NCBI GenBank assembly: GCA_028820455.1
Contig: JAPPJC010000058.1
Coordinates: 1 to 44,394, forward strand
Direction of reading: 5' to 3'
DNA length: 44,394 nt
Source: Acidimicrobiaceae bacterium
Lineage (GTDB): Bacteria; Actinomycetota; Acidimicrobiia; Acidimicrobiales; Aldehydirespiratoraceae
Shown here: piece by piece, positions 1 through 44,394 of the stretch
How positions within the stretch are numbered: the first letter of the stretch is position 1
Layout: every line of letters starts with the position of its first letter
Notes under the pieces: model-generated
Seen by the model: the letters and a program-made list of their open reading frames with translations, nothing else
The model's database searches: none
What the model was told of the DNA's origin: nothing
Program-made: the position numbers and the translations under genes

Positions 1-63
1 CACCGAATTCAAAGACACCTACTACCCCCGACTCCACCCTCAAGTCCGAAGAGCCTTCAAGTC
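1..63 (+). other. Short relic, resembles a segment beside the hsdS relic
   Basis: Positions 30-55 nearly match 24726-24752 (about three differences over 26-27 nt), which lies inside the hsdS relic. Read in one plus-strand frame it gives a Pro/Thr/Ser-rich stretch like the linker of the MntA-HsdS fusion near 17745. It may be the last scrap of a similar hsdS gene cut by the window edge. Too short to be sure. Confidence 0.2.
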
Positions 64-8564: not shown

Positions 8565-8624
8565 CAGAGCTTATGGTAGCAGTTTCAACATTGAATGTAT
8601 CCGGCTCTAAACGAAGAGGTGTCT

Positions 8625-9725
8625 GTGTCTAGGAACGCTGATTCGGTTGATGATCAGAATCCCCTTGATCAGGTACAGAGTGAGATAGCCGATCACGCAG
8701 CCACGCTGGTCTCATATGAGATTCTGACCTATCCTGCTGATTATACGCTGGAGGTTCTGGTTGACAAGTGGCGAAAGAAGCAGATCGTGGTTCCTGTTTT
8801 TCAGCGCCGCTTTGTTTGGAACCAAAACCAGTCCAGCAAGCTTATCGATTCTTTCTTGAAAGGTCTTCCTGTTCCACCGATTTTCCTATTCCAGGATTTG
8901 AAATCGCAAGAGTTACTTGTGGTTGACGGGCAGCAGCGGGTTCGGACCATTGCGAGCTTTTTTGATGGCTATTTCGGTGAGGAAAGAGCAGGCAGACAAA
9001 GCATTTTTGCTCTGAAAGGGCTTGAAAAAGGCAACAGGTATGAGGGTCTCACCTATAGTTCTATGGAAGACCAGGATCCTGTGGCATTTGCTGCACTCAA
9101 CAATTCTGTTCTGCGGGCTATGATAATTCGGCAGCTAGAGCCTGCTGATGATACCAGTGTCTATCATGTGTTCGAGAGACTCAATACAGGAGGAACTCAA
9201 CTCACTCCACAAGAGATACGGAATTGTGTGCATCACGGCCCGTTGAACGACATGCTGATCGAATGCAACAAATTCGGACCGTGGCGAAAGATATTCGGAC
9301 ACCAGAATCCTGATAAACGACAAAGAGATGTGGAACTCATACTCAGATTTCTTGCGCTTACAAAGAATCATGATGACTATAAGAGTCCGATGAAAGGATT
9401 TCTCAACAACTTCATGATGCAGTATGGAACTAAAGACAGTGACTATATGGATGAGTTGGCGTGCATGTTCAAAAAAACTGCAAGTGCTGTTTTAGACAAC
9501 CTGGGTGAGAAGCCTTTCCATATACGTGCCGGACTCAACGCAGCAGTTTTTGACAGCGTGTTCGTTGCCATCAGTCGTATCAAAAAAGAAGACTATGAGG
9601 ATATTCAAGACAAGTACGAGAAACTGACTTCAAGTGAAGAATTCATGAAATGCGTAACAGCGAGTACCACTGATGAGAACACGGTTGCGAAACGTCTGTT
9701 GTTAGCTTTTGAAACTCTGAGTTAA
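8625..9725 (+). CDS. DUF262-domain NTPase (GmrS/SspE-like)
   Basis: A DUF262 protein of about 366 aa. The family signature is clear: IVVPVFQRRFVWNQNQ, then LVVDGQQRVRTI, then FERLNTGGTQLTPQEIRN. In characterised relatives such as GmrSD, SspE and BrxU, this domain binds nucleotide through its DGQQR motif and drives a nuclease. The C-terminal DUF1524 HNH nuclease found in many relatives is not visible, so this copy may depend on a partner. I prefer the GTG at 8625 because GAAGAGG precedes it with 5-nt spacing; an ATG at 8595 in the same frame has no ribosome site. It is the first gene of an operon that ends with the 1094-aa helicase. Confidence 0.85.
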   Translation: MSRNADSVDDQNPLDQVQSEIADHAATLVSYEILTYPADYTLEVLVDKWRKKQIVVPVFQRRFVWNQNQSSKLIDSFLKGLPVPPIFLFQDLKSQELLVVDGQQRVRTIASFFDGYFGEERAGRQSIFALKGLEKGNRYEGLTYSSMEDQDPVAFAALNNSVLRAMIIRQLEPADDTSVYHVFERLNTGGTQLTPQEIRNCVHHGPLNDMLIECNKFGPWRKIFGHQNPDKRQRDVELILRFLALTKNHDDYKSPMKGFLNNFMMQYGTKDSDYMDELACMFKKTASAVLDNLGEKPFHIRAGLNAAVFDSVFVAISRIKKEDYEDIQDKYEKLTSSEEFMKCVTASTTDENTVAKRLLLAFETLS

Positions 9726-10205: not shown

Positions 10206-10346
10206 GTGGACTTGAGCCAAACAGTCAATCGTCTTGCCAGTGACTGTCCAGAGGGATCCAAGATTGAATTTCTAGCTATATACTTGCCAGAAGACGGCAT
10301 CGGGTATGTTAGAGATGTGGCCGTTCAGAAACGGAAGACTTTATGA
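10206..10346 (+). pseudogene. 46-codon C-terminal stub overlapping the helicase start
   Basis: The frame reads VDLSQTVNRLASDCPEG, continues through LAIYLPEDGIG and ends QKRKTL. Its TGA overlaps the helicase ATG in an ATGA arrangement at 10343-10346, as expected if the original partner gene was translationally coupled to the helicase. A GTG at 10206 is available but lacks a clear ribosome site. I take it as the C-terminus of the gene whose N-terminus is at 9898-10185. Confidence 0.4.
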
Positions 10347-13300
10347 GGCTTTCTGAGGATGCCTTCAGGGAGTTGGAGTCGCACTGGGCATTCCAGGCTC
10401 TGGGCCGCGAATCAATGGATCGTGCATCCAACATAGCCAATGAGCGTCTCGCTGAACAGGCTGTCGGTCAGCAGATATCATTCGACTTTCAGGCAACGAG
10501 TGGAAACGGAAACACGCAGAACAACGATGCAGACACACACTTATTGGAGCGTGTAGTACTTGCCTACGAATTGGCCGCGATTGAGGGGCTTGGAGAGCTC
10601 AGTCGTCCCGAAGGTGGGAATGACTCCCTGCGTCAACAAGCGGTGGCTGCGTCTTTCAGAGCGTTTGATATACGTCGTTTGCTAGCGGTTCCTGATACGA
10701 CCCAAGAAAGGTTGCATCATGTTCTTCAGCTTTCGGCTTTGGCGTATTGTGGTGATCGGTGGTCGGATCTACGCCGTTGGTATTCGGATCACTCTGAAGC
10801 CTTGGATGTTCCGAGTGTTGCTGATATCTCTTGGGATCAAAGGCTTCTTTACAGGCTGTTTCATTGCTGGATACGACTGTTCAGAAAGAACGGCTGGGAT
10901 GACTTGGACCGAGTCCGTGAGACCATCGCGGGTTTGCGTGAGGATCAAAAGACGATGGAGGCTCAAAGACTTCGCAACGAATCCCCCGAGGTGGACCGTG
11001 CGATTGCATTACGACTCGTAGCACTGTATCACTGGGCCCGAGCTACGGAAGTACTTGCTCTCTATATGCTTCAAGGGCAGCCGAATCAACCCTTCGGGCA
11101 TATTGAAAAGCATTATGAAGCTGCGATACGGGCAGCGACTGCGTCTGGTGATGCACAGCATGAAATGATCCTTCGGTGGCTTTACGCAACTTCGCAGTCG
11201 ATGATCACGAATTCGCTTTGGTGGACTACCAGAGCGATCAATTCTCGTACTTCGAATTTCATTGAATCTCTGACAAGGCGAGAGTCCCATGCCATGTTCG
11301 AACTTCTGCCACCACAGAGAGCGGCTTTAGTGGAGTACGGTTTATTGGATCAAGCGAAGACGGCCATTGTCGTCGACCTACCCACGTCTGGTGGTAAGAC
11401 TTTGTTGGCGCAGTTCCGGATGCTGCAAGCATTGAACCAATTCGATGCTGATATTGGATGGGTTGCTTATGTGGCACCAACCCGCGCATTGTCAGCGCAG
11501 ATTACTCGCACTTTGCGTCGTGATTTCGGTCCTATCGGCATACGGATCGAACAGTTGACCGCTGCCGTGGAAATCGATACTTTCGAAGAAGAACTGCTGA
11601 ACGACACTGAAACACCTTTCCATGTGCTTGTGGCAACACCGGAAAAGCTGTCGCTCGTGATCCGCAATAAGAAGATAGAGCGTCCGCTGGCGTTGATTGT
11701 GATGGACGAGGCCCACAACATAGAGGATGAAAGTCGAGGGATGCGCATTGAGTTCCTACTGGCGACTATCAAACGCGAATGCCCGAAGGCGAATTTCCTG
11801 CTTCTCATGCCCTATGTGGACAGTCCCGAATTAATCGCCCGCTGGCTCGCGCATGACATAGATGCCGGTCAGTCCATAAGCCTTGGTACATCACCATGGA
11901 AACCCAACGAACGCATCATCGGGTTGTATCGTGCTGTTGCCGATGATAGCCAACGGGCCGGATGGCGTCTTGAGTTCGAAACACTCACGACCACTGAAAA
12001 AGCAATGGCCTTGCGTGGCACACACCGGGTAGGCCCTGTGCGTCCCATTGATGTACCCAAGAACCGTGTTCTCAGTGGTGCGACACAGCAAGGCCTGGGA
12101 CTTCAGACAGCTGCCATCGGCTCCGTCTTGTCAGCTCGTGGCACGAGCATAGCGGTTGCGAACAACATAAACACTGTCTGGGATATGGCCACAAAAGCAG
12201 CTGACGCTCTTCCGTCTTTCGATAATGTGCCATCTGAAATCCGTCTCGTTCAGAATTTTCTGCGCACCGAGATAGCTTCTGATTTTCGACTCATAGGGAT
12301 GCTTGAATCAGGCGTGGGAGTGCATCATGCCGGCTTGTCGGACGATGTGAGAACACTCATGGAATGGCTTGCTGAGACCGGAAAACTCAAACTGCTCTGT
12401 GCTACTTCCACGATAGCACAGGGAATAAATTTTCCGGTAGCGTCAGTTTTTCTGGCATCCAGATTCGTGCCCGACAAGGGTAGATCTATGCCGATGTCTC
12501 CGAGAGAATTCTGGAATCTCGCCGGACGTGCAGGAAGGCTAACACACGACAGCGTTGGAGTCATAGGTCTAGCTGAAGGCACTGATCGGAATGCTGTTGT
12601 AGAGTTCGTCGGACGAAATACCGGGCTACTAGTGTCAAGACTGGTCACGCTCTTAGAAGAGCTCGCAAGCCGCGGAGAGCTCGCAAGCTTGTCAACAGTA
12701 CTGTGGCAGGATCAGTGGGAGGATTTCCGCTGTTACATCGCTCACTTATGGGCTGAAAAGAAGAACCTGGACCTGGTGTTGGCGGATTCCGAACAACTCC
12801 TGCGCCAGACATACGGGTACAGAACACTTAGAAGCGACCCTGAACACGAAGAGAAAGCCGAGACACTTCTAGAAGCAACACGCTCCTATGCATACGAACT
12901 TGCCGATATGAACCCGGGTATTATAACTCTGGCAGATGCAACAGGATTCTCTCCTGAGGGTGTGAACAAGGCGATGTTCGGGTTGAACAGTTTGGAACAG
13001 AAACTGAAACCATCGGACTGGGCACCGGAAAGCCTTTTCGGCGCCGATGGTAGGATGTCCGATCTTTTCGGTGTGATGCTGAAAGTCCCACAACTCAAAC
13101 AACACTTGGAGGACATCGCATCAAAAGGATTGGATCATTCTCGCATAGCCAATATGACACTCGATTGGGTGAACGGGAAGACCTTGAACGATATCGCTTC
13201 TTCGTATTTCAGCGATTCCAAGGACTCCTTGACCGCTGCTTGTAAGGCGGTCTACCGGGCTATAGTCAACAGCGGTACCTGGGGGGTTTCCGCTTTGAAC

Positions 13301-13627
13301 CAGATGGCAGGTCCAGACTTGGACGCACTCTCAGAAGCCGATCGTCGCCGCATGAATGCGCTTCCAGCCATGATCTACCACGGCGTTCGCTCAGAGGAAG
13401 CGGTCCTCATGCGTATGAACGCCGCACCCCGCAGTGCCGCGGAAGGACTGGGCCGCATCTATCGCGACATCACAGGCGACGACGACAGCAGATATTCGAT
13501 TGGCAAGGCACGCGAATTCCTGCAAGATCTGACTCCAGGCGAATGGGACCGCGCACGCCCTGAGGATGCCGCGTTGTCCGGTGCTGATTACAAGAACGTA
13601 TGGGAGATTCTCTCAGGTGAGACATGA
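10343..13627 (+). CDS. SF2 DExH helicase, Ski2-like (HamB/AbpB-like)
   Basis: A 1094-aa superfamily 2 helicase. Residues 1-330 are a helical N-terminal region. The core shows Walker A DLPTSGGKT near residue 349, APTRALSAQ, VATPEKL, VMDEAHNIED near 454, then ATSTIAQGINFP and the motif VI region NLAGRAGRLTHD near 727. A long helical C-terminal domain follows. The layout of a small partner gene directly coupled to a large SF2 helicase is that of Hachiman-type anti-phage systems, in which the helicase gates a nuclease. Here the partner appears deleted, while the DUF262 NTPase upstream could act instead. The helicase frame itself is intact. Part of its 3' end is duplicated at 8292-8385. Confidence 0.85.
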   Translation: MRLSEDAFRELESHWAFQALGRESMDRASNIANERLAEQAVGQQISFDFQATSGNGNTQNNDADTHLLERVVLAYELAAIEGLGELSRPEGGNDSLRQQAVAASFRAFDIRRLLAVPDTTQERLHHVLQLSALAYCGDRWSDLRRWYSDHSEALDVPSVADISWDQRLLYRLFHCWIRLFRKNGWDDLDRVRETIAGLREDQKTMEAQRLRNESPEVDRAIALRLVALYHWARATEVLALYMLQGQPNQPFGHIEKHYEAAIRAATASGDAQHEMILRWLYATSQSMITNSLWWTTRAINSRTSNFIESLTRRESHAMFELLPPQRAALVEYGLLDQAKTAIVVDLPTSGGKTLLAQFRMLQALNQFDADIGWVAYVAPTRALSAQITRTLRRDFGPIGIRIEQLTAAVEIDTFEEELLNDTETPFHVLVATPEKLSLVIRNKKIERPLALIVMDEAHNIEDESRGMRIEFLLATIKRECPKANFLLLMPYVDSPELIARWLAHDIDAGQSISLGTSPWKPNERIIGLYRAVADDSQRAGWRLEFETLTTTEKAMALRGTHRVGPVRPIDVPKNRVLSGATQQGLGLQTAAIGSVLSARGTSIAVANNINTVWDMATKAADALPSFDNVPSEIRLVQNFLRTEIASDFRLIGMLESGVGVHHAGLSDDVRTLMEWLAETGKLKLLCATSTIAQGINFPVASVFLASRFVPDKGRSMPMSPREFWNLAGRAGRLTHDSVGVIGLAEGTDRNAVVEFVGRNTGLLVSRLVTLLEELASRGELASLSTVLWQDQWEDFRCYIAHLWAEKKNLDLVLADSEQLLRQTYGYRTLRSDPEHEEKAETLLEATRSYAYELADMNPGIITLADATGFSPEGVNKAMFGLNSLEQKLKPSDWAPESLFGADGRMSDLFGVMLKVPQLKQHLEDIASKGLDHSRIANMTLDWVNGKTLNDIASSYFSDSKDSLTAACKAVYRAIVNSGTWGVSALNQMAGPDLDALSEADRRRMNALPAMIYHGVRSEEAVLMRMNAAPRSAAEGLGRIYRDITGDDDSRYSIGKAREFLQDLTPGEWDRARPEDAALSGADYKNVWEILSGET

Positions 13628-16938: not shown

Positions 16939-17370
16939 ATGGAATTAGATCTGACCGGTCTGAGAAACGCTGTTACTCGGCTAGAAGAGGCCCTGGCCGA
17001 TTATCACTTGGATCCTGTCCCGGGTGTCCCACGTTACAAGAAAAATATGAGGGCTGCGGTGATACAGTCATTCGAGTTTACCTATGAGCTCTCTTTCAAG
17101 ACGTTGCGGCGCTATCTCAGACTCGCCTCAGCCAATCCGGCAGAAATAGGCCAACTCAGTTTCAGTAATGTGATACGAGAGGCATACCGACAAGAACTTA
17201 TACGATTGGAACTTTCAGCATGGCGAGAGTTTCGCGAAAATCGTGCTATAACCAGTCATACCTATGACGAAGAGAAAGCACAAGCAGTATTTGAGGTGGT
17301 GCCGGGTTTCCTCGACGAGGCTCGATATCTTTTGAGCCAATTGGGCGAGAAGATCAAAACCCTTGACTAG
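16939..17370 (+). CDS. hepT: HepT-type HEPN toxin (HI0074 family)
   Basis: A 143-aa protein of the HI0074/nucleotidyltransferase substrate-binding family, an all-helical HEPN fold. Residues 102-109, R-AITS-H-T-Y, match RX4HXY exactly. In the Shewanella HepT-MntA pair this motif is the RNase active site, and the partner nucleotidyltransferase neutralises it by adding AMP units to the tyrosine. AGAGGAAGG lies upstream of the ATG with roughly 10-nt spacing. Its last 8 nt overlap the TTG start of the next gene, whose N-terminal domain is the matching nucleotidyltransferase. The active-site motif looks intact, so the toxin is probably functional. Confidence 0.85.
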   Translation: MELDLTGLRNAVTRLEEALADYHLDPVPGVPRYKKNMRAAVIQSFEFTYELSFKTLRRYLRLASANPAEIGQLSFSNVIREAYRQELIRLELSAWREFRENRAITSHTYDEEKAQAVFEVVPGFLDEARYLLSQLGEKIKTLD

Positions 17371-19051
17371 TCCTATCGACATAAGGCCCGACCACCTTGA
17401 AATTGTGCAGGGGATTCTGCAAGAACATCTTCCCGCTGGTTTCAAAGTGTGGGTGTTCGGCAGCCGCGCCGACTGGTCGGCCAATGATGCCTCGGACTTG
17501 GACCTGGCTGTGGAAGACAATGACAAGCTCAGCTACAAGTTGTTGGACACGCTAAAAGACGCATTCGACAACTCAACCCTTCCCTACACGGTCGACGTCG
17601 TTGACCTAAACAGGATCAGTGGCTCCTTCAAACAGATCGTGGAATCACAGCGAGTATCCCTGCCCATCGACAGAGACAGAACCAAACAGCGCACACCCCC
17701 ATCCAGTACCCCTGCGAGTAAGACCACTCGCGAAGAAACACCTCTCACTACTACCCCCGGCAAGTGGCGTCGAGTTGCTTTGAATGACTTGATCGACCTC
17801 CAGCTCAGCAGTGTAGACAAGAAATCAAAGGCAAATGAACGAGCTGTGCAGCTTTGCAACTACATGGACGTGTACAAGAACAGTTTCATTCACACAGGCA
17901 TGGATTTTATGGCGGCAACTGCTACCGAACGCGAGATAGCAAAGTGCTCACTGTCAGCAGGGGATGTTGTCATTACAAAAGACTCTGAGAAGCATGACGA
18001 CATCGGTGTACCAGCATTGGTACGGGAAGACATTCCTAACTTAGTCTGCGGTTATCATTTAGCAATTCTTCGTCCGCGTCTATCGCAAATCGATGGCACT
18101 TATCTCTTCTATGCATTGAATGCTTGTCAGGTCCAACAGCAGTTCCATTCATTTGCAAATGGAGTCACACGATTCGGATTACGGAAGGCGGATATTGGTC
18201 TTGTAGAAATTCCGCTTCCACCTTTCTCTGAGCAGCGCACCATCGCCCACATCCTAAGCACTCTTGATGACAAGATCGAGTTGAACCGCCGCATGAGCGA
18301 AACATTAGAGGAAGTAGCGAAAGCACTATTCAAGTCATGGTTCATCGACTTCGATCCTGTCCAAGCCAAGATGAAGGGCTGGTGGCGGCAGGGTGAGTCA
18401 CTCCACGGCCTCCCCGCCAACCTCTACGACCTCTTCCCCAGCCGCCTAGTTGACTCCGAATTGGGCCCGATTCCTGAAGGCTGGCAAATTAAGCAGATCA
18501 AAGACATAGCAGAACACCTACGAGACACCGCAGATCCTCGGGATTCGCCTCAGACTTTATTCAGCCACTTTAGCATTCCAGCTTATGATTCTAATCAGAT
18601 GCCTGTACATGAGTATGGAAGTTGCATCAAGAGCCGAAAGACTGTCGTTCGACCAGGAGTAACTCTGATATCCAGACTCAACCCCGAGACCGAGCGCGTA
18701 TGGCTAACAGATGTGAAACAGAACGAACAGGCTGTCTGTTCGACAGAGTTTTTGATGCTTAACCCGATATCGCCATTTACCTCTAGTTACATCTATTGTC
18801 TAGCTCGTTCGACAACCTTCAGAAGAGGCTTAGTATCTCTTGTTACCGGCACATCCAAGAGCCATCAGCGAGCACCAGTGAAAGCGGTACTCTCAATGAG
18901 AGTCTTGATGCCACCAAAACACATTGTCGCAACATTTGATAGTCATGTGAAACCTATTCTCGATAGTATTCTAATAACACGTAGTGAGTCGAGCTCACTC
19001 GCAAACTCTCGTCGCTACCTATTGCCCCGACTTATCTCAGGAGAGCTTTGA
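17363..19051 (+). CDS. MntA nucleotidyltransferase fused to type I specificity subunit HsdS
   Basis: A 562-aa fusion. Residues 1-105 are a minimal nucleotidyltransferase with GS at 33-34, ten residues, then D45-L-D47, the GSX10DXD pattern of MntA antitoxins. A Thr/Pro/Ser-rich linker (106-135) leads to a full two-domain HsdS: TRD1 (about 136-310, ending IPLPPFSEQRTIAHILSTLD), a central conserved helix (LNRRMSETLEEVAKALFKSW), TRD2 (about 370-535, from LGPIPEGWQIKQI) and the end SRRYLLPRLISGEL. The TTG start overlaps the hepT stop, giving coupling of antitoxin to toxin. In the window hsdM is only a relic and hsdR is absent. The antitoxin may therefore be tethered to DNA-recognition domains or to a restriction complex encoded elsewhere. 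Confidence 0.9.
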   Translation: MTSPIDIRPDHLEIVQGILQEHLPAGFKVWVFGSRADWSANDASDLDLAVEDNDKLSYKLLDTLKDAFDNSTLPYTVDVVDLNRISGSFKQIVESQRVSLPIDRDRTKQRTPPSSTPASKTTREETPLTTTPGKWRRVALNDLIDLQLSSVDKKSKANERAVQLCNYMDVYKNSFIHTGMDFMAATATEREIAKCSLSAGDVVITKDSEKHDDIGVPALVREDIPNLVCGYHLAILRPRLSQIDGTYLFYALNACQVQQQFHSFANGVTRFGLRKADIGLVEIPLPPFSEQRTIAHILSTLDDKIELNRRMSETLEEVAKALFKSWFIDFDPVQAKMKGWWRQGESLHGLPANLYDLFPSRLVDSELGPIPEGWQIKQIKDIAEHLRDTADPRDSPQTLFSHFSIPAYDSNQMPVHEYGSCIKSRKTVVRPGVTLISRLNPETERVWLTDVKQNEQAVCSTEFLMLNPISPFTSSYIYCLARSTTFRRGLVSLVTGTSKSHQRAPVKAVLSMRVLMPPKHIVATFDSHVKPILDSILITRSESSSLANSRRYLLPRLISGEL

Positions 19052-25382: not shown

Positions 25383-27716
25383 ATGATCCGGAATATTCAG
25401 CTACTTAGAAACATAGGGATGTTTGATTCTGTTGACGCGGGAGCAGATATCGATCTTGACAAGCTCGTGCTGATATACGCGGAGAACGGACGCGGTAAGA
25501 CGACTCTCACTGCTGTTCTGCGTTCCCTCGCTACTGATGATCCATCTATTCTTATAGGACGACACCGGCTTGGTGCTGATGACAAACCACATATTGTGCT
25601 CAAGCACGGGACAGATTCACGGGCCATGGTTTTTGAGGATGGAATATGGGAGGGCACACGACCTAATATCGCTATATATGACGATGAGTTTGTTGATGAG
25701 AATGTATATTCAGGACTCACTGTTGAGGCAAAGCATCGCAAGCAGTTACATGGACTCATCCTCGGAGCTCAAGGGGTTAAGCTTTCTAAGCAGCTTCAAA
25801 GCAGAATATCGCAGATTGAGGAACACAATACTGTATTAAGAAAATTGTCCACACGTATAGAAGAAATGGAACTTCATGGGCTATCTGTGGATGAATTTTG
25901 CGAACTTCCTGAACAACAGGATATTGATACACAGATTCAAGAGAAGGAGCGTCTTCTTGCCGCTGCTAAAAATCAGGACAATGTACGTGATACGCCTCTA
26001 TTTGACTTATTGGATCTGCCCGCTTTCGACATTGATGGCATTGATACTGTCCTTGCTTTTGAGTTATCTGATCTGGATGCTGCTGCTGAGGCAGAAGTTC
26101 GTGCTCACATCGACACGTTGGATGAAAATGGTGAACAATGGCTCAATGATGGCATGTTGACAATACAGCAACGTAACTATGAGGGACCTTGTCCTTTCTG
26201 CGCTCAGGATATCAGTGGATCAGTCATCCTGGATCATTATCGAGCCTATTTCAGTGAAGGCTACTCGAAGATGAAACACAAAATAGAAGAATGCTTAGCA
26301 GTGGTAAAAAACACACACAATAGAGCGGCACAGACAGCTTTCGAACGTTCTATCCGTGTTATTTATAAAAGACGCCAATTCTGGTCTCGTTTCTGTGAAG
26401 TTCCAGAGATATCAATCAATACCGAGGAAATCATGCATGACTGGAACGCTGCACGCGAACATGTCCTGCAAACATTGCAAGCGAAACAGAAATCCCCCCT
26501 GGAACCCCATGCGCTCACTGATGAAGCACGCGTCGCTCTCACCACCTACAAGTCTCACAGGAGATCAATAACAGAGCTCACCGCCAAACTGGATGTAGCC
26601 AACCAAAGTATGCAAACAATCAAAGAACAGGCAGCAGATGATAACATAGAATCTATCGCTACGGAACTTTCACGCCTCAAAGTCGCCAAGGTCCGTCATA
26701 TGCCTGAAGCGACGCGACTTTGCGAAGAGTATATACGCAAAAATGAAGTTAAAACTCTCACAGAAAGAGGACGTGATAGTGTCAAAGCTCAACTCAAGGA
26801 GTGTCGTGATACTGTCTTTCCCGCGTCGAAACAAATGATCAATGGCTACCTTCGTCAGTTTGGCACTGGCTTTCAGCTTGAAAAAGTTGCTTCGAAATTT
26901 TTACGGAGTGGCAGCATATGCACCTACAATGTTGTCATCAATGAGTCATCTGTTGCTTTTGACAAGAAGGCAATACCAGGAAAACCTTCGTTTAGCAATA
27001 CGTTGAGTTCTGGTGATCGCAATACTCTAGCATTAGCCTTTTTCTTCGCGGCACTGGATCAAGATATCGCACTTGAGAACAAGATAGTTGTAATTGACGA
27101 TCCGCTCTCAAGTTTGGATAAGCATCGCTCCCATACAACCGTCAACATGATCAAGAAGCTTGTGAAAAGAGCAGAACAGGTATTTGTGCTGTCGCATGAC
27201 AAGCAATTCCTCCTCAATGTCTGGGAACAAGCGAATCGCTCATCAGAATTTCCAAAGCCGGTAACGATTGAAATTACCCGACAGAAAACAGGGTCAATGT
27301 TAAGCCCTTGGGATATAGAACAAGACTTCTTGACTGAACACGACCGACGTCATGGCCGTTTATCTACCTATATGACAGAAGGAACTGGCGATAAGAACAA
27401 GATAGCTCAGGACATCCGACTCCACCTGGAAAAATTTCTGCGAATAGCCCATCCAGCGGAGTTTCCACCTGGAGCGATGCTAGGTCCCTTCCTAAGCAAA
27501 TGTCGTCAGCAGGCAAACGAGTCAGGAGAGTTTTTAGATCAAACTACCCTCCATGAATTAAACGAACTTGTTGATTACGCGAACAGATTTCACCATTCCG
27601 CTGACAACACACCACAGGCGATGCCAGAAATCAACGACACAGAACTCAAGACATTTGTGCAAAGAACATTGGCATTCACGTCTACAAAAATCGGCAATAT
27701 GAGAATAAACTTATAA
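25383..27716 (+). CDS. PrrC/RloC-like AAA_13 ATPase, candidate anticodon nuclease
   Basis: A 777-aa ABC-type ATPase of the AAA_13 family. Walker A YAENGRGKTT is near residue 36, a zinc-hook-like PCPFC (C269, C272) sits in the middle of coiled coils, signature LSSGDRNT is near 541, Walker B VVIDDPLSSLD near 569, and the H-loop VLSHDKQF follows. The C-terminal 100 residues contain R679 and E683 (IRLHLEKF) and H737/H738 (NRFHHS). This resembles the Arg-X3-Glu...His triad of the anticodon nucleases PrrC and RloC. RloC also carries the zinc hook. The protein lies in a type I restriction locus, as PrrC does. The ATPase call is firm; the tRNA-cutting activity is inferred. Confidence 0.8.
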   Translation: MIRNIQLLRNIGMFDSVDAGADIDLDKLVLIYAENGRGKTTLTAVLRSLATDDPSILIGRHRLGADDKPHIVLKHGTDSRAMVFEDGIWEGTRPNIAIYDDEFVDENVYSGLTVEAKHRKQLHGLILGAQGVKLSKQLQSRISQIEEHNTVLRKLSTRIEEMELHGLSVDEFCELPEQQDIDTQIQEKERLLAAAKNQDNVRDTPLFDLLDLPAFDIDGIDTVLAFELSDLDAAAEAEVRAHIDTLDENGEQWLNDGMLTIQQRNYEGPCPFCAQDISGSVILDHYRAYFSEGYSKMKHKIEECLAVVKNTHNRAAQTAFERSIRVIYKRRQFWSRFCEVPEISINTEEIMHDWNAAREHVLQTLQAKQKSPLEPHALTDEARVALTTYKSHRRSITELTAKLDVANQSMQTIKEQAADDNIESIATELSRLKVAKVRHMPEATRLCEEYIRKNEVKTLTERGRDSVKAQLKECRDTVFPASKQMINGYLRQFGTGFQLEKVASKFLRSGSICTYNVVINESSVAFDKKAIPGKPSFSNTLSSGDRNTLALAFFFAALDQDIALENKIVVIDDPLSSLDKHRSHTTVNMIKKLVKRAEQVFVLSHDKQFLLNVWEQANRSSEFPKPVTIEITRQKTGSMLSPWDIEQDFLTEHDRRHGRLSTYMTEGTGDKNKIAQDIRLHLEKFLRIAHPAEFPPGAMLGPFLSKCRQQANESGEFLDQTTLHELNELVDYANRFHHSADNTPQAMPEINDTELKTFVQRTLAFTSTKIGNMRINL

Positions 27717-33246: not shown

Positions 33247-33686
33247 ATGAAACCTTCCCGCTTATGCGAATCTTTGAATGACAGCCTTTCTATGCTTTTT
33301 CAGTGTACGTGTACGCTCACCGAGCGCGGAGCTGTTCGTGTGAGGACTCCGTTCATGTATCCAGAGATGGAGACATTATTGATGTGTTCGTGGAACCCAC
33401 GGACGAAACGTATTCCGTGACCGACTACGGGGAAGCTCTCGGCTGGCTTCAGCTTCAAAGTTTCAGCGACAAATTAACACCGAACCAGCGTGTCATGATT
33501 GAAGACATATGTATGACGCTAGGAATACAGTTTGATATGGGAGGGTTGAAACTCACCGGTGTTGACGAGTCTCCGCTGGGAGATACAATTCATCGTCTAG
33601 GCCAGGCGAGCGTACGAGTATCCGACATCTGGCTCACTCTTCGCAATAGTGCTGTGGTTGACGTAGCCGATGAAGTCGAACAGTGA
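33247..33686 (+). pseudogene. DUF1828 gene with one frameshift
   Basis: The N-terminal part (MKPSRLCESLNDSLSML through RVRTPF) runs in one frame from an ATG at 33247. The rest (RDGDIIDVFVEPTDETYSVT, DYGEALGWLQL and onward to VADEVEQ) is in the neighbouring frame. Together they form a normal DUF1828 protein of about 145 codons, with the family's TPF...DGD...TDYG pattern, so a single indel near 33362 breaks the gene. DUF1828 proteins are often found with toxin-antitoxin-like partners. Its stop at 33684-33686 abuts the end of the convergent DUF4365 gene with no gap. Copies of its parts occur at 36948-37064 and 43915-43950. Confidence 0.7.
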
Positions 33687-43230: not shown

Positions 43231-43635
43231 TCACCAGATGACTTTCACATCTTCTGAGCCGTAGTCTCGAATCCTCGAGTCCTTCGACACTAAAGGCCAT
43301 CCCCGATCCAGAGCGGTTGCATAAATCTGCCGGTCGGCTGGATCACCTGAAAACAATGATGACAACGAGCATGCAACTACCGCGATAGCAGGTGACAATG
43401 GCACAGTCACCAATGTGCACGCCAACTCGTCAAGCCAAGAACTCACAGGCTGCTTCGGTGTGATGCGACCGTTGATAGCAAGCCAAGCCAACTCATACCA
43501 GGTCACAGACGCAACCGCTAGCTGATCTGCATTGCCGATTGTGCGGGCGGCAGCGGAACTAAGACGTTCGGGTTCAGCTGACGCCCAATGCACTATATGG
43601 GTGTCGAGTAGTAGAGTATTCAACTCGACGTCCAC
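43231..43635 (-). CDS. vapC: VapC PIN-domain toxin
   Basis: A 134-aa PIN-domain ribonuclease. The acidic catalytic residues are in place: D11 (LLLDTHIVHW), E48 (TWYELAW), D98/D101 (GDPADRQIYA) and D119 (VSKDSRIRDY). Its start overlaps the antitoxin gene by 16 bp, the usual coupling of VapBC operons. VapC toxins cleave tRNA or rRNA; the target of this one is unknown. Confidence 0.9.
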   Translation of the reverse strand: MDVELNTLLLDTHIVHWASAEPERLSSAAARTIGNADQLAVASVTWYELAWLAINGRITPKQPVSSWLDELACTLVTVPLSPAIAVVACSLSSLFSGDPADRQIYATALDRGWPLVSKDSRIRDYGSEDVKVIW

Positions 43636-43847
43636 GTCTCACCAGTGCAGAACAGAGCCTCGTCATTTGAAGTGCTGCTAACCGATCCTGCTAGCATGCC
43701 GACAAAAGCCGCAGGTCCTCGAGCGGGCACTAACCGTGCTACAGTTCGTCCGTGTTTGGTGATCTCGATCTCCGCACCAGACGCCACTTCATCGAGCAGG
43801 CCCAAGATTTGCGCTTTAGCCTGAGTCGCTGTCACCTGTTTCAGCAT
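43620..43847 (-). CDS. vapB: Phd/YefM-family antitoxin (VapB)
   Basis: A 75-aa antitoxin. Residues 1-45 (MLKQVTATQAKAQILGLLDE, EIEITKHGRTVARLVP) are a Phd/YefM DNA-binding domain; the C-terminal tail wraps the toxin in this family. I chose the ATG at 43847 because a TATAAT box ends 7 nt before it, giving a leaderless message; an ATG three codons upstream overlaps that box. It overlaps vapC by 16 bp. Confidence 0.85.
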   Translation of the reverse strand: MLKQVTATQAKAQILGLLDEVASGAEIEITKHGRTVARLVPARGPAAFVGMLAGSVSSTSNDEALFCTGETWTSS

Positions 43848-43854
43848 AATGACC

Positions 43855-43870
43855 ATTATAATAGCTATTA
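43855..43870 (-). promoter_or_regulatory. VapBC promoter with palindromic operator
   Basis: On the minus strand TATAAT occupies 43860-43855. It overlaps TAATAGCTATTA (43859-43870), a perfect 12-bp palindrome. Phd-type antitoxins repress their own promoter by binding such palindromes, so this is probably the autoregulatory site. No convincing -35 is seen. Confidence 0.6.
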
Positions 43871-43914
43871 CACGATGATAACTACCGCTCTGAAGATGTC
43901 AGCAGCAAATCAAC

Positions 43915-43950
43915 ACGAGTCAGTGTGTCATGATTGAAGATATATGTACG
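43915..43950 (+). pseudogene. DUF1828 internal fragment, third copy
   Basis: GTGTCATGATTGAAGATATA and flanking bases match GTGTCATGATTGAAGACATA of the DUF1828 gene (33488-33520). About 35 bp only. Confidence 0.5.
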
Positions 43951-44062
43951 ACACGACACTAATTAGATCATGAATAAGACATTGAAAATATCAAGCTATC
44001 TTTGAGTGAAATCGTCAGATTTCTCCAGTTGTCTTTTAACAGGTTATGGATGGAGAAGGACG

Positions 44063-44394
44063 ATGTCTGTATTTGATAGGATAGAATGGTCACAACTCAA
44101 AGCGTGGGCGGATCAAACAGCGGCGCGGTCTGAGCTGCCGCGTCTCATTCGACAGTTGATCTTGGAGACCACGTCGGGTTTGGTGGGGATTGGCGTGCCT
44201 ACAAGTGAGTTTTGGTGGCCGACCATTCCCTTACCCACTAAACTCCACCCACCTCGAGGGGCTCACGTGAGCGGGTTTTGGTGGCCGACCATTCCCTTAC
44301 CCACTAAACTCGGATCACTCACCAGAGGAGCTCCAGGGCGGTTTTGGTGGCCGACCATTCCCTTACCCACTAAACTCGGATCACTCACCAGAGG
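44063..44394 (+). CDS. N-terminus of a large NTPase-like protein, interrupted by the repeat array
   Basis: GGAGAAGGA precedes the ATG at 44063. The first 49 codons (RIEWSQLKAWADQTAARSEL, PRLIRQLILETT) look like the conserved start of a large protein family that I associate with actinobacterial defence regions. From memory its members continue with a GFPAGEG-GWDG-like segment. Here, right after GVPTSE, the frame enters the 36-bp repeat array. The frame stays open through the visible array because the 66-bp period is a multiple of three, encoding FWWPTIPLPTKL per repeat. The product is incomplete at the window end. Either the gene was cut by an array or it encodes a repetitive protein. Confidence 0.45.
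   Translation, partial: MSVFDRIEWSQLKAWADQTAARSELPRLIRQLILETTSGLVGIGVPTSEFWWPTIPLPTKLHPPRGAHVSGFWWPTIPLPTKLGSLTRGAPGRFWWPTIPLPTKLGSLTR
44210..44394 (+). CRISPR. CRISPR-like array start: 36-bp repeats, 30-bp spacers
   Basis: Three identical 36-bp repeats (TTTTGGTGGCCGACC ... CCCACTAAACTC, each also preceded by G) start at 44210, 44276 and 44342, separated by 30-bp spacers. The repeat has near-inverted GTTTTGG/CTAAAC ends, and its reverse strand contains GAATGGTC and ends CCACCAAAAC, reminiscent of type II repeats. The 36/30 geometry is also that of type II or V arrays. Against this, spacer 2 and the visible 17 nt of spacer 3 are identical. Spacer 1 holds palindromes CCTCGAGG and GCTCACGTGAGC, and spacer 2 holds GGAGCTCC. 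No cas gene is in the window. A minisatellite is the main alternative. Confidence 0.55.

What the first reader, a model, noticed from the sequence alone, without database searches (positions are those of the whole stretch)
44063..44394. 36/30 CRISPR-like array beginning inside a conserved gene
A gene with a good ribosome site and a recognisable start runs, at codon 50, into three perfect 36-bp repeats with 30-bp spacers, the geometry of type II/V CRISPR. The reading frame stays open because 66 is divisible by three. Spacer 2 and the start of spacer 3 are identical, and the spacers hold 8-12 bp palindromes, which is odd for phage-derived spacers. Options are a CRISPR array that inserted into or truncated a defence gene, a coding minisatellite repeating FWWPTIPLPTKL, or an assembly chimera at a repeat.
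Basis: partly seen in the sequence, partly recalled or inferred. Interest (0 to 1): 0.78.

Follow-up and report, generated by a model that had tools for sequence, protein, structure and literature searches.

The report
Split type II-C CRISPR-Cas9 array
The repeats at the end of this contig are the beginning of an ordinary bacterial CRISPR-Cas9 immune array (the Cas9, Cas1, Cas2 and guide-helper RNA genes are on another contig of the same genome); it only looks like part of a gene because the array directly abuts the broken-off start of an old gene and the assembly stops there.

Summary
In detail: three perfect 36-nt repeats with 30-nt spacers start at 44209 and run off the contig end. The window is a whole contig (C9). 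The repeat occurs once more in the genome, at the start of contig C58, followed by cas2, cas1, an intact 1057-aa cas9 and a conserved tracrRNA. It is therefore a type II-C CRISPR-Cas9 array, split by the assembly. Homologous loci (Cas9 59-65% identical) occur in five other genomes; the two with long arrays have the same kind of repeat and many different spacers.

The contig stops here for technical reasons: the last 55 nt of C9 copy 44274-44328 exactly, and the first 55 nt of C58 are the end of a multi-copy ISL3-like insertion sequence lying inside a repeat. Such 55-nt overlaps are what a k=55 de Bruijn assembly gives at repeats. The repeated spacer 2 is most likely a real tandem duplication.

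The 'conserved gene' is a 48-49 codon remnant of a 1300-1500-aa protein family, cut off at the array boundary. The FWWPTIPLPTKL peptide is a frame coincidence. Type II-C arrays do not depend on an upstream leader promoter, so a 5' end flush against unrelated DNA is unremarkable. No protospacers were found. Ordinary; low interest.

The parts
44063..44208 (+). Remnant of a gene: ~49 codons related to a stretch of 1300-1500-aa proteins of unknown function, cut off at the array
   Evidence: 48-aa fragment 51% identical to a pseudogene on C28, whose 90-aa ORF matches ORFs of 1284-1520 aa in other genomes; DNA similarity to C28 ends exactly at 44208; no Pfam family, and two homologous ORFs have no PADLOC hit
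44209..44244 (+). CRISPR repeat 1 (cas-distal end of the array)
44245..44274 (+). Spacer 1, CCACCCACCTCGAGGGGCTCACGTGAGCGG; no protospacer found
44275..44310 (+). CRISPR repeat 2
44311..44340 (+). Spacer 2, CGGATCACTCACCAGAGGAGCTCCAGGGCG; no protospacer found
44341..44376 (+). CRISPR repeat 3
44377..44394 (+). Start of spacer 3, identical to spacer 2; probably a tandem duplicate of the spacer 2 unit, cut by the contig end at a repeated 55-mer

Best explanation
This is the cas-distal (5') end of the array of a type II-C CRISPR-Cas9 system. In the genome the array most likely continues from C9 through an unassembled middle, which holds a tandem duplicate of the spacer 2 unit and an ISL3-like insertion sequence sitting in a repeat. 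It then runs to the last spacer and last repeat on C58 (65-94 and 95-130), next to cas2-cas1-cas9, with the tracrRNA just upstream of cas9. Each repeat-spacer unit is transcribed towards cas2, pairs with the tracrRNA anti-repeat and guides Cas9 to cut matching DNA. The array directly abuts a truncated old gene; its open frame through the repeats has no coding meaning. Shown by sequence: repeats, spacers, cas genes, tracrRNA, multi-copy element end. Inferred: physical adjacency of C9 and C58, the insertion-sequence family and its target duplication, transcription, immunity.
For: The only other copy of the repeat in the 2.4-Mb genome is at C58:95-130. Next to it are Cas2 (PF09827, 2.4e-18), Cas1 (TIGR03639 type II Cas1, 234 bits against cut-off 120) and Cas9 (TIGR01865, 580 bits against cut-off 100). 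Cas9 has conserved RuvC and HNH motifs and 58-65% identity to four homologues. The tracrRNA upstream of cas9 carries the anti-repeat core AAGGGAATGGTTGGC and is conserved in five loci, with 8 of 27 predicted pairs showing a change on both sides that keeps the pair. Relatives L015 and L016 have array and cas genes together, homologous repeats, and 24 and 11 repeat copies with different spacers. G084's contig likewise begins with a repeat next to its cas genes. C58:1-55 is shared exactly with C27 and, for 53 nt, with C6 and C8.
Against: The C9-C58 link is not directly assembled. The two pieces could be two arrays of one system, although each lacks just the end that the other has. No protospacer was found, so immunity is not shown. 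Subtype II-C is inferred from gene content, gene order and Cas9 size and similarity, not from a subtype-specific model.
Confidence: 0.93

Rival explanations
1. Coding minisatellite: the gene at 44063 really encodes a protein with FWWPTIPLPTKL repeats.
For: The frame is open to the contig end and 66 is divisible by three.
Against: The same repeat lies beside cas2-cas1-cas9 and pairs with a conserved tracrRNA; related arrays have 65-67-nt units and unrelated spacers; spacer 1 differs from spacer 2; the C28 paralogue continues with different sequence at the junction.
Confidence: 0.01
2. Two separate arrays: C9 holds an array away from the cas genes, and C58 holds another next to them.
For: No assembled sequence joins them; C9's array begins inside a gene remnant rather than at a recognised leader.
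Against: Each array piece lacks exactly the end the other has, and no other repeat copies are in the assembly.
Confidence: 0.15
3. The exact junction of gene and first repeat is a sign of the array being moved or re-founded inside the gene (IS-mediated deletion, or off-target Cas1-Cas2 integration).
For: DNA similarity to the C28 paralogue stops exactly at the repeat boundary; many contigs of the genome end in IS-like ends.
Against: L016's array starts about 4 nt after the stop codon of an MltG-like gene, and L015's 5'-most repeat is itself truncated, so 5' ends without an evident leader occur in this group; one example cannot date or order the events.
Confidence: 0.15

Closest known systems
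Type II-C CRISPR-Cas9 systems (e.g. Neisseria meningitidis, Flavobacterium columnare)
   Same: cas9-cas1-cas2 only, 36-nt repeats with ~30-nt spacers, tracrRNA, compact Cas9 (1057 aa); crRNA strand reads towards the cas-side end
   Different: Repeats end in CTAAACT, CTAACCT or CTAAAGT rather than the reported TAAAT promoter element (PMC8092290), so repeat promoters are plausible but untested; an insertion-sequence-like end lies inside one repeat
II-C loci of MAGs JAPOQN010000037.1 (Chloroflexi APA_bin_86, L015) and WTFX01000029.1 (Microthrixaceae CO36386bin_14, L016)
   Same: Cas9 59-64% identical, homologous repeat core, conserved tracrRNA, array beside cas2
   Different: Arrays of 24 and 11 repeat copies on single contigs (L016 with masked bases); different spacers; different flanking sequence at the 5' end

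Membership tests
CRISPR array | Identical direct repeats of 23-50 nt separated by spacers of similar length | tested here: met
   36/30 geometry, three perfect repeats
CRISPR array | Spacers differ from each other | tested here: met
   Spacers 1, 2 and the C58 spacer differ; only the spacer 2 unit repeats
CRISPR array | Spacers match mobile DNA | tested here: inconclusive
   No exact 22-nt match in IMG/VR; only chance-level hits in phage records; no self-match for spacers 1 and 2
Type II CRISPR-Cas | Cas9 with RuvC and HNH domains, type II Cas1, Cas2 | tested here: met
Type II CRISPR-Cas | tracrRNA complementary to the repeat | tested here: met
   L005:4668-4772(+), conserved and covarying in five loci
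Subtype II-C | No csn2 or cas4 in the operon; compact Cas9; cas9-cas1-cas2 order | tested here: met
   The sequence between the last repeat and cas2 is about 40 nt, and the tracrRNA lies upstream of cas9; Cas9 is 1057 aa; csn2 and cas4 were not searched for elsewhere in the genome
Subtype II-C | Promoters inside repeats | not testable with these tools
   Repeat 3' ends keep TAnnnT (TAAACT, TAACCT, TAAAGT); no RNA data

The most novel reading that the evidence does not exclude
The array was re-founded or displaced into the gene, so that the truncated gene's own promoter now acts as a captured leader for the crRNAs.
Probability: 0.06. Interest if true: 0.4.

Novelty: new member of a known kind. 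Interest (0 to 1): 0.15.

Why it matters
It matters mainly as annotation: it adds one more II-C Cas9 locus to a group of environmental bacteria and shows how an array at a contig end next to a gene remnant can look like a repeat-containing gene. The insertion-sequence-like end inside a repeat suggests that part of the array is separated from the cas-side end.

Tried and rejected
Coding minisatellite (rejected, see rivals). Spacer targets: exact 22-nt pattern scans of viral contigs for three spacers and blastn against phage records gave nothing above chance; no self-targets for spacers 1 and 2 within 3 mismatches. Rfam scan of the first 6 kb of the cas contig and the window end: no family. Pfam for the truncated gene and homologous ORFs: none; PADLOC for two homologous ORFs: none; NCBIfam for the C28 copy: none. 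The acquisition end of the array could not be settled: L016 and C58 have the changed repeat on the cas side, L015 on the far side. Plasmid records were not searched for the spacers.

Full report
Observation. The three repeats are real. Their boundaries, set by comparison with the C58 unit and with relatives, are 36 nt (GTTTTGGTGGCCGACCATTCCCTTACCCACTAAACT) with 30-nt spacers. The window is the whole of contig C9 of an 84-contig, 2.4-Mb genome, so the array is cut by the contig end.

Why the contig ends there. The last 55 bases equal 44274-44328 exactly, and the match extends no further to the left. Contig C58, which carries the other copy of the repeat, starts with 55 bases that are found exactly at the end of C27 and, for 53 bases, at the ends of C6 and C8. 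Identical 55-base overlaps at contig ends are the mark of a de Bruijn graph assembler with k=55 (my inference). In C9 the repeated node is best explained by a tandem duplication of the repeat-spacer 2 unit. In C58 it is the end of a multi-copy insertion sequence. That end reads ...CGCGAAGAGCC; its reverse complement GGCTCTTCGCG...GGGTGG resembles an end next to an ISL3-type transposase fragment elsewhere in the genome (GGCTCTTCAGATTTGCGGGTGG). The 8 bases after it, CACTAAAC, are positions 27-34 of the repeat and would be the target duplication if the element is ISL3-like (8-bp duplications are from my general knowledge of that family).

What it belongs to. C58 continues after a last, one-base-variant repeat with cas2, cas1 and cas9, all reading towards the array. 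The proteins match Cas2, type II Cas1 and Cas9 models far above cut-off, and Cas9 keeps its RuvC and HNH motifs. Upstream of cas9 lies a tracrRNA whose sequence and stems are conserved with compensatory changes in five loci. Relatives with Cas9 about 59-65% identical are L015, L016, G084, G017 (one stop codon in the frame) and G001. L015 and L016 show 24 and 11 repeat copies with diverse spacers and units of 65-67 nt. This establishes the array as CRISPR and excludes a coding repeat.

The gene. The 48-aa fragment is 51% identical to a paralogue on C28. That paralogue is itself a pseudogene: its 90-aa frame breaks off, and a piece resembling the C-terminus of the long homologue follows (my reading of the sequences). 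The long homologues are 1284-1520-aa frames in other genomes, without Pfam or PADLOC matches where tested. DNA similarity between C9 and C28 stops exactly at the first repeat. So the window has a gene remnant abutting the 5' end of the array.

Why no leader is needed there. [quoted passage not shown]). In L016 the 5' end of the array lies about 4 nt after the stop codon of an MltG-like gene (gene name from my reading of the protein), and in L015 the 5'-most repeat is truncated. A 5' end flush against unrelated sequence therefore has a parallel in this group. Which end acquires spacers here is not settled: the cas-side repeat is the altered one in C58 and L016, the far-side repeat in L015.

Spacers. 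No convincing protospacers were found, as is common for environmental genomes. The palindromes are within what related arrays and shuffles show, given that they were picked after the fact.

Verdict. A split but ordinary type II-C CRISPR-Cas9 locus.

Noticed in passing
window 64-36608: The contig is a defence island: PADLOC hits include a UvrD-like helicase (64-2532), an NsnA/PD-T4-2_A-like protein (8595-9725), a near full-length PDC-M23B helicase (10343-13627, 1385 bits), a type I restriction specificity subunit (17363-19051) and a PDC-S06 ATPase (25383-27716).
   Followed up: partly
window 43231-43856: A Phd/YefM antitoxin and PIN-domain toxin pair (minus strand) lies just upstream of the gene remnant and array.
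   Followed up: no
window 1-55: The window's own start and many other contig ends of this assembly (C58, C6, C8, C27 and others) are related insertion-sequence ends (...CGAAGAGCC), so IS expansion explains much of the fragmentation.
   Followed up: partly
L029 8209-8979 (G084 C14): A second, unrelated repeat array (71-75-nt period, different spacers) lies about 4 kb from the II-C cas genes of G084.
   Followed up: no
L044 2036-6442 and homologues: A family of 1300-1500-aa proteins with no Pfam or PADLOC match, two broken copies of which occur in this genome; function unknown.
   Followed up: partly
window 43900-43952 and 33464-33517: A 53-bp intergenic stretch is repeated within the window at 83% identity.
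   Followed up: no
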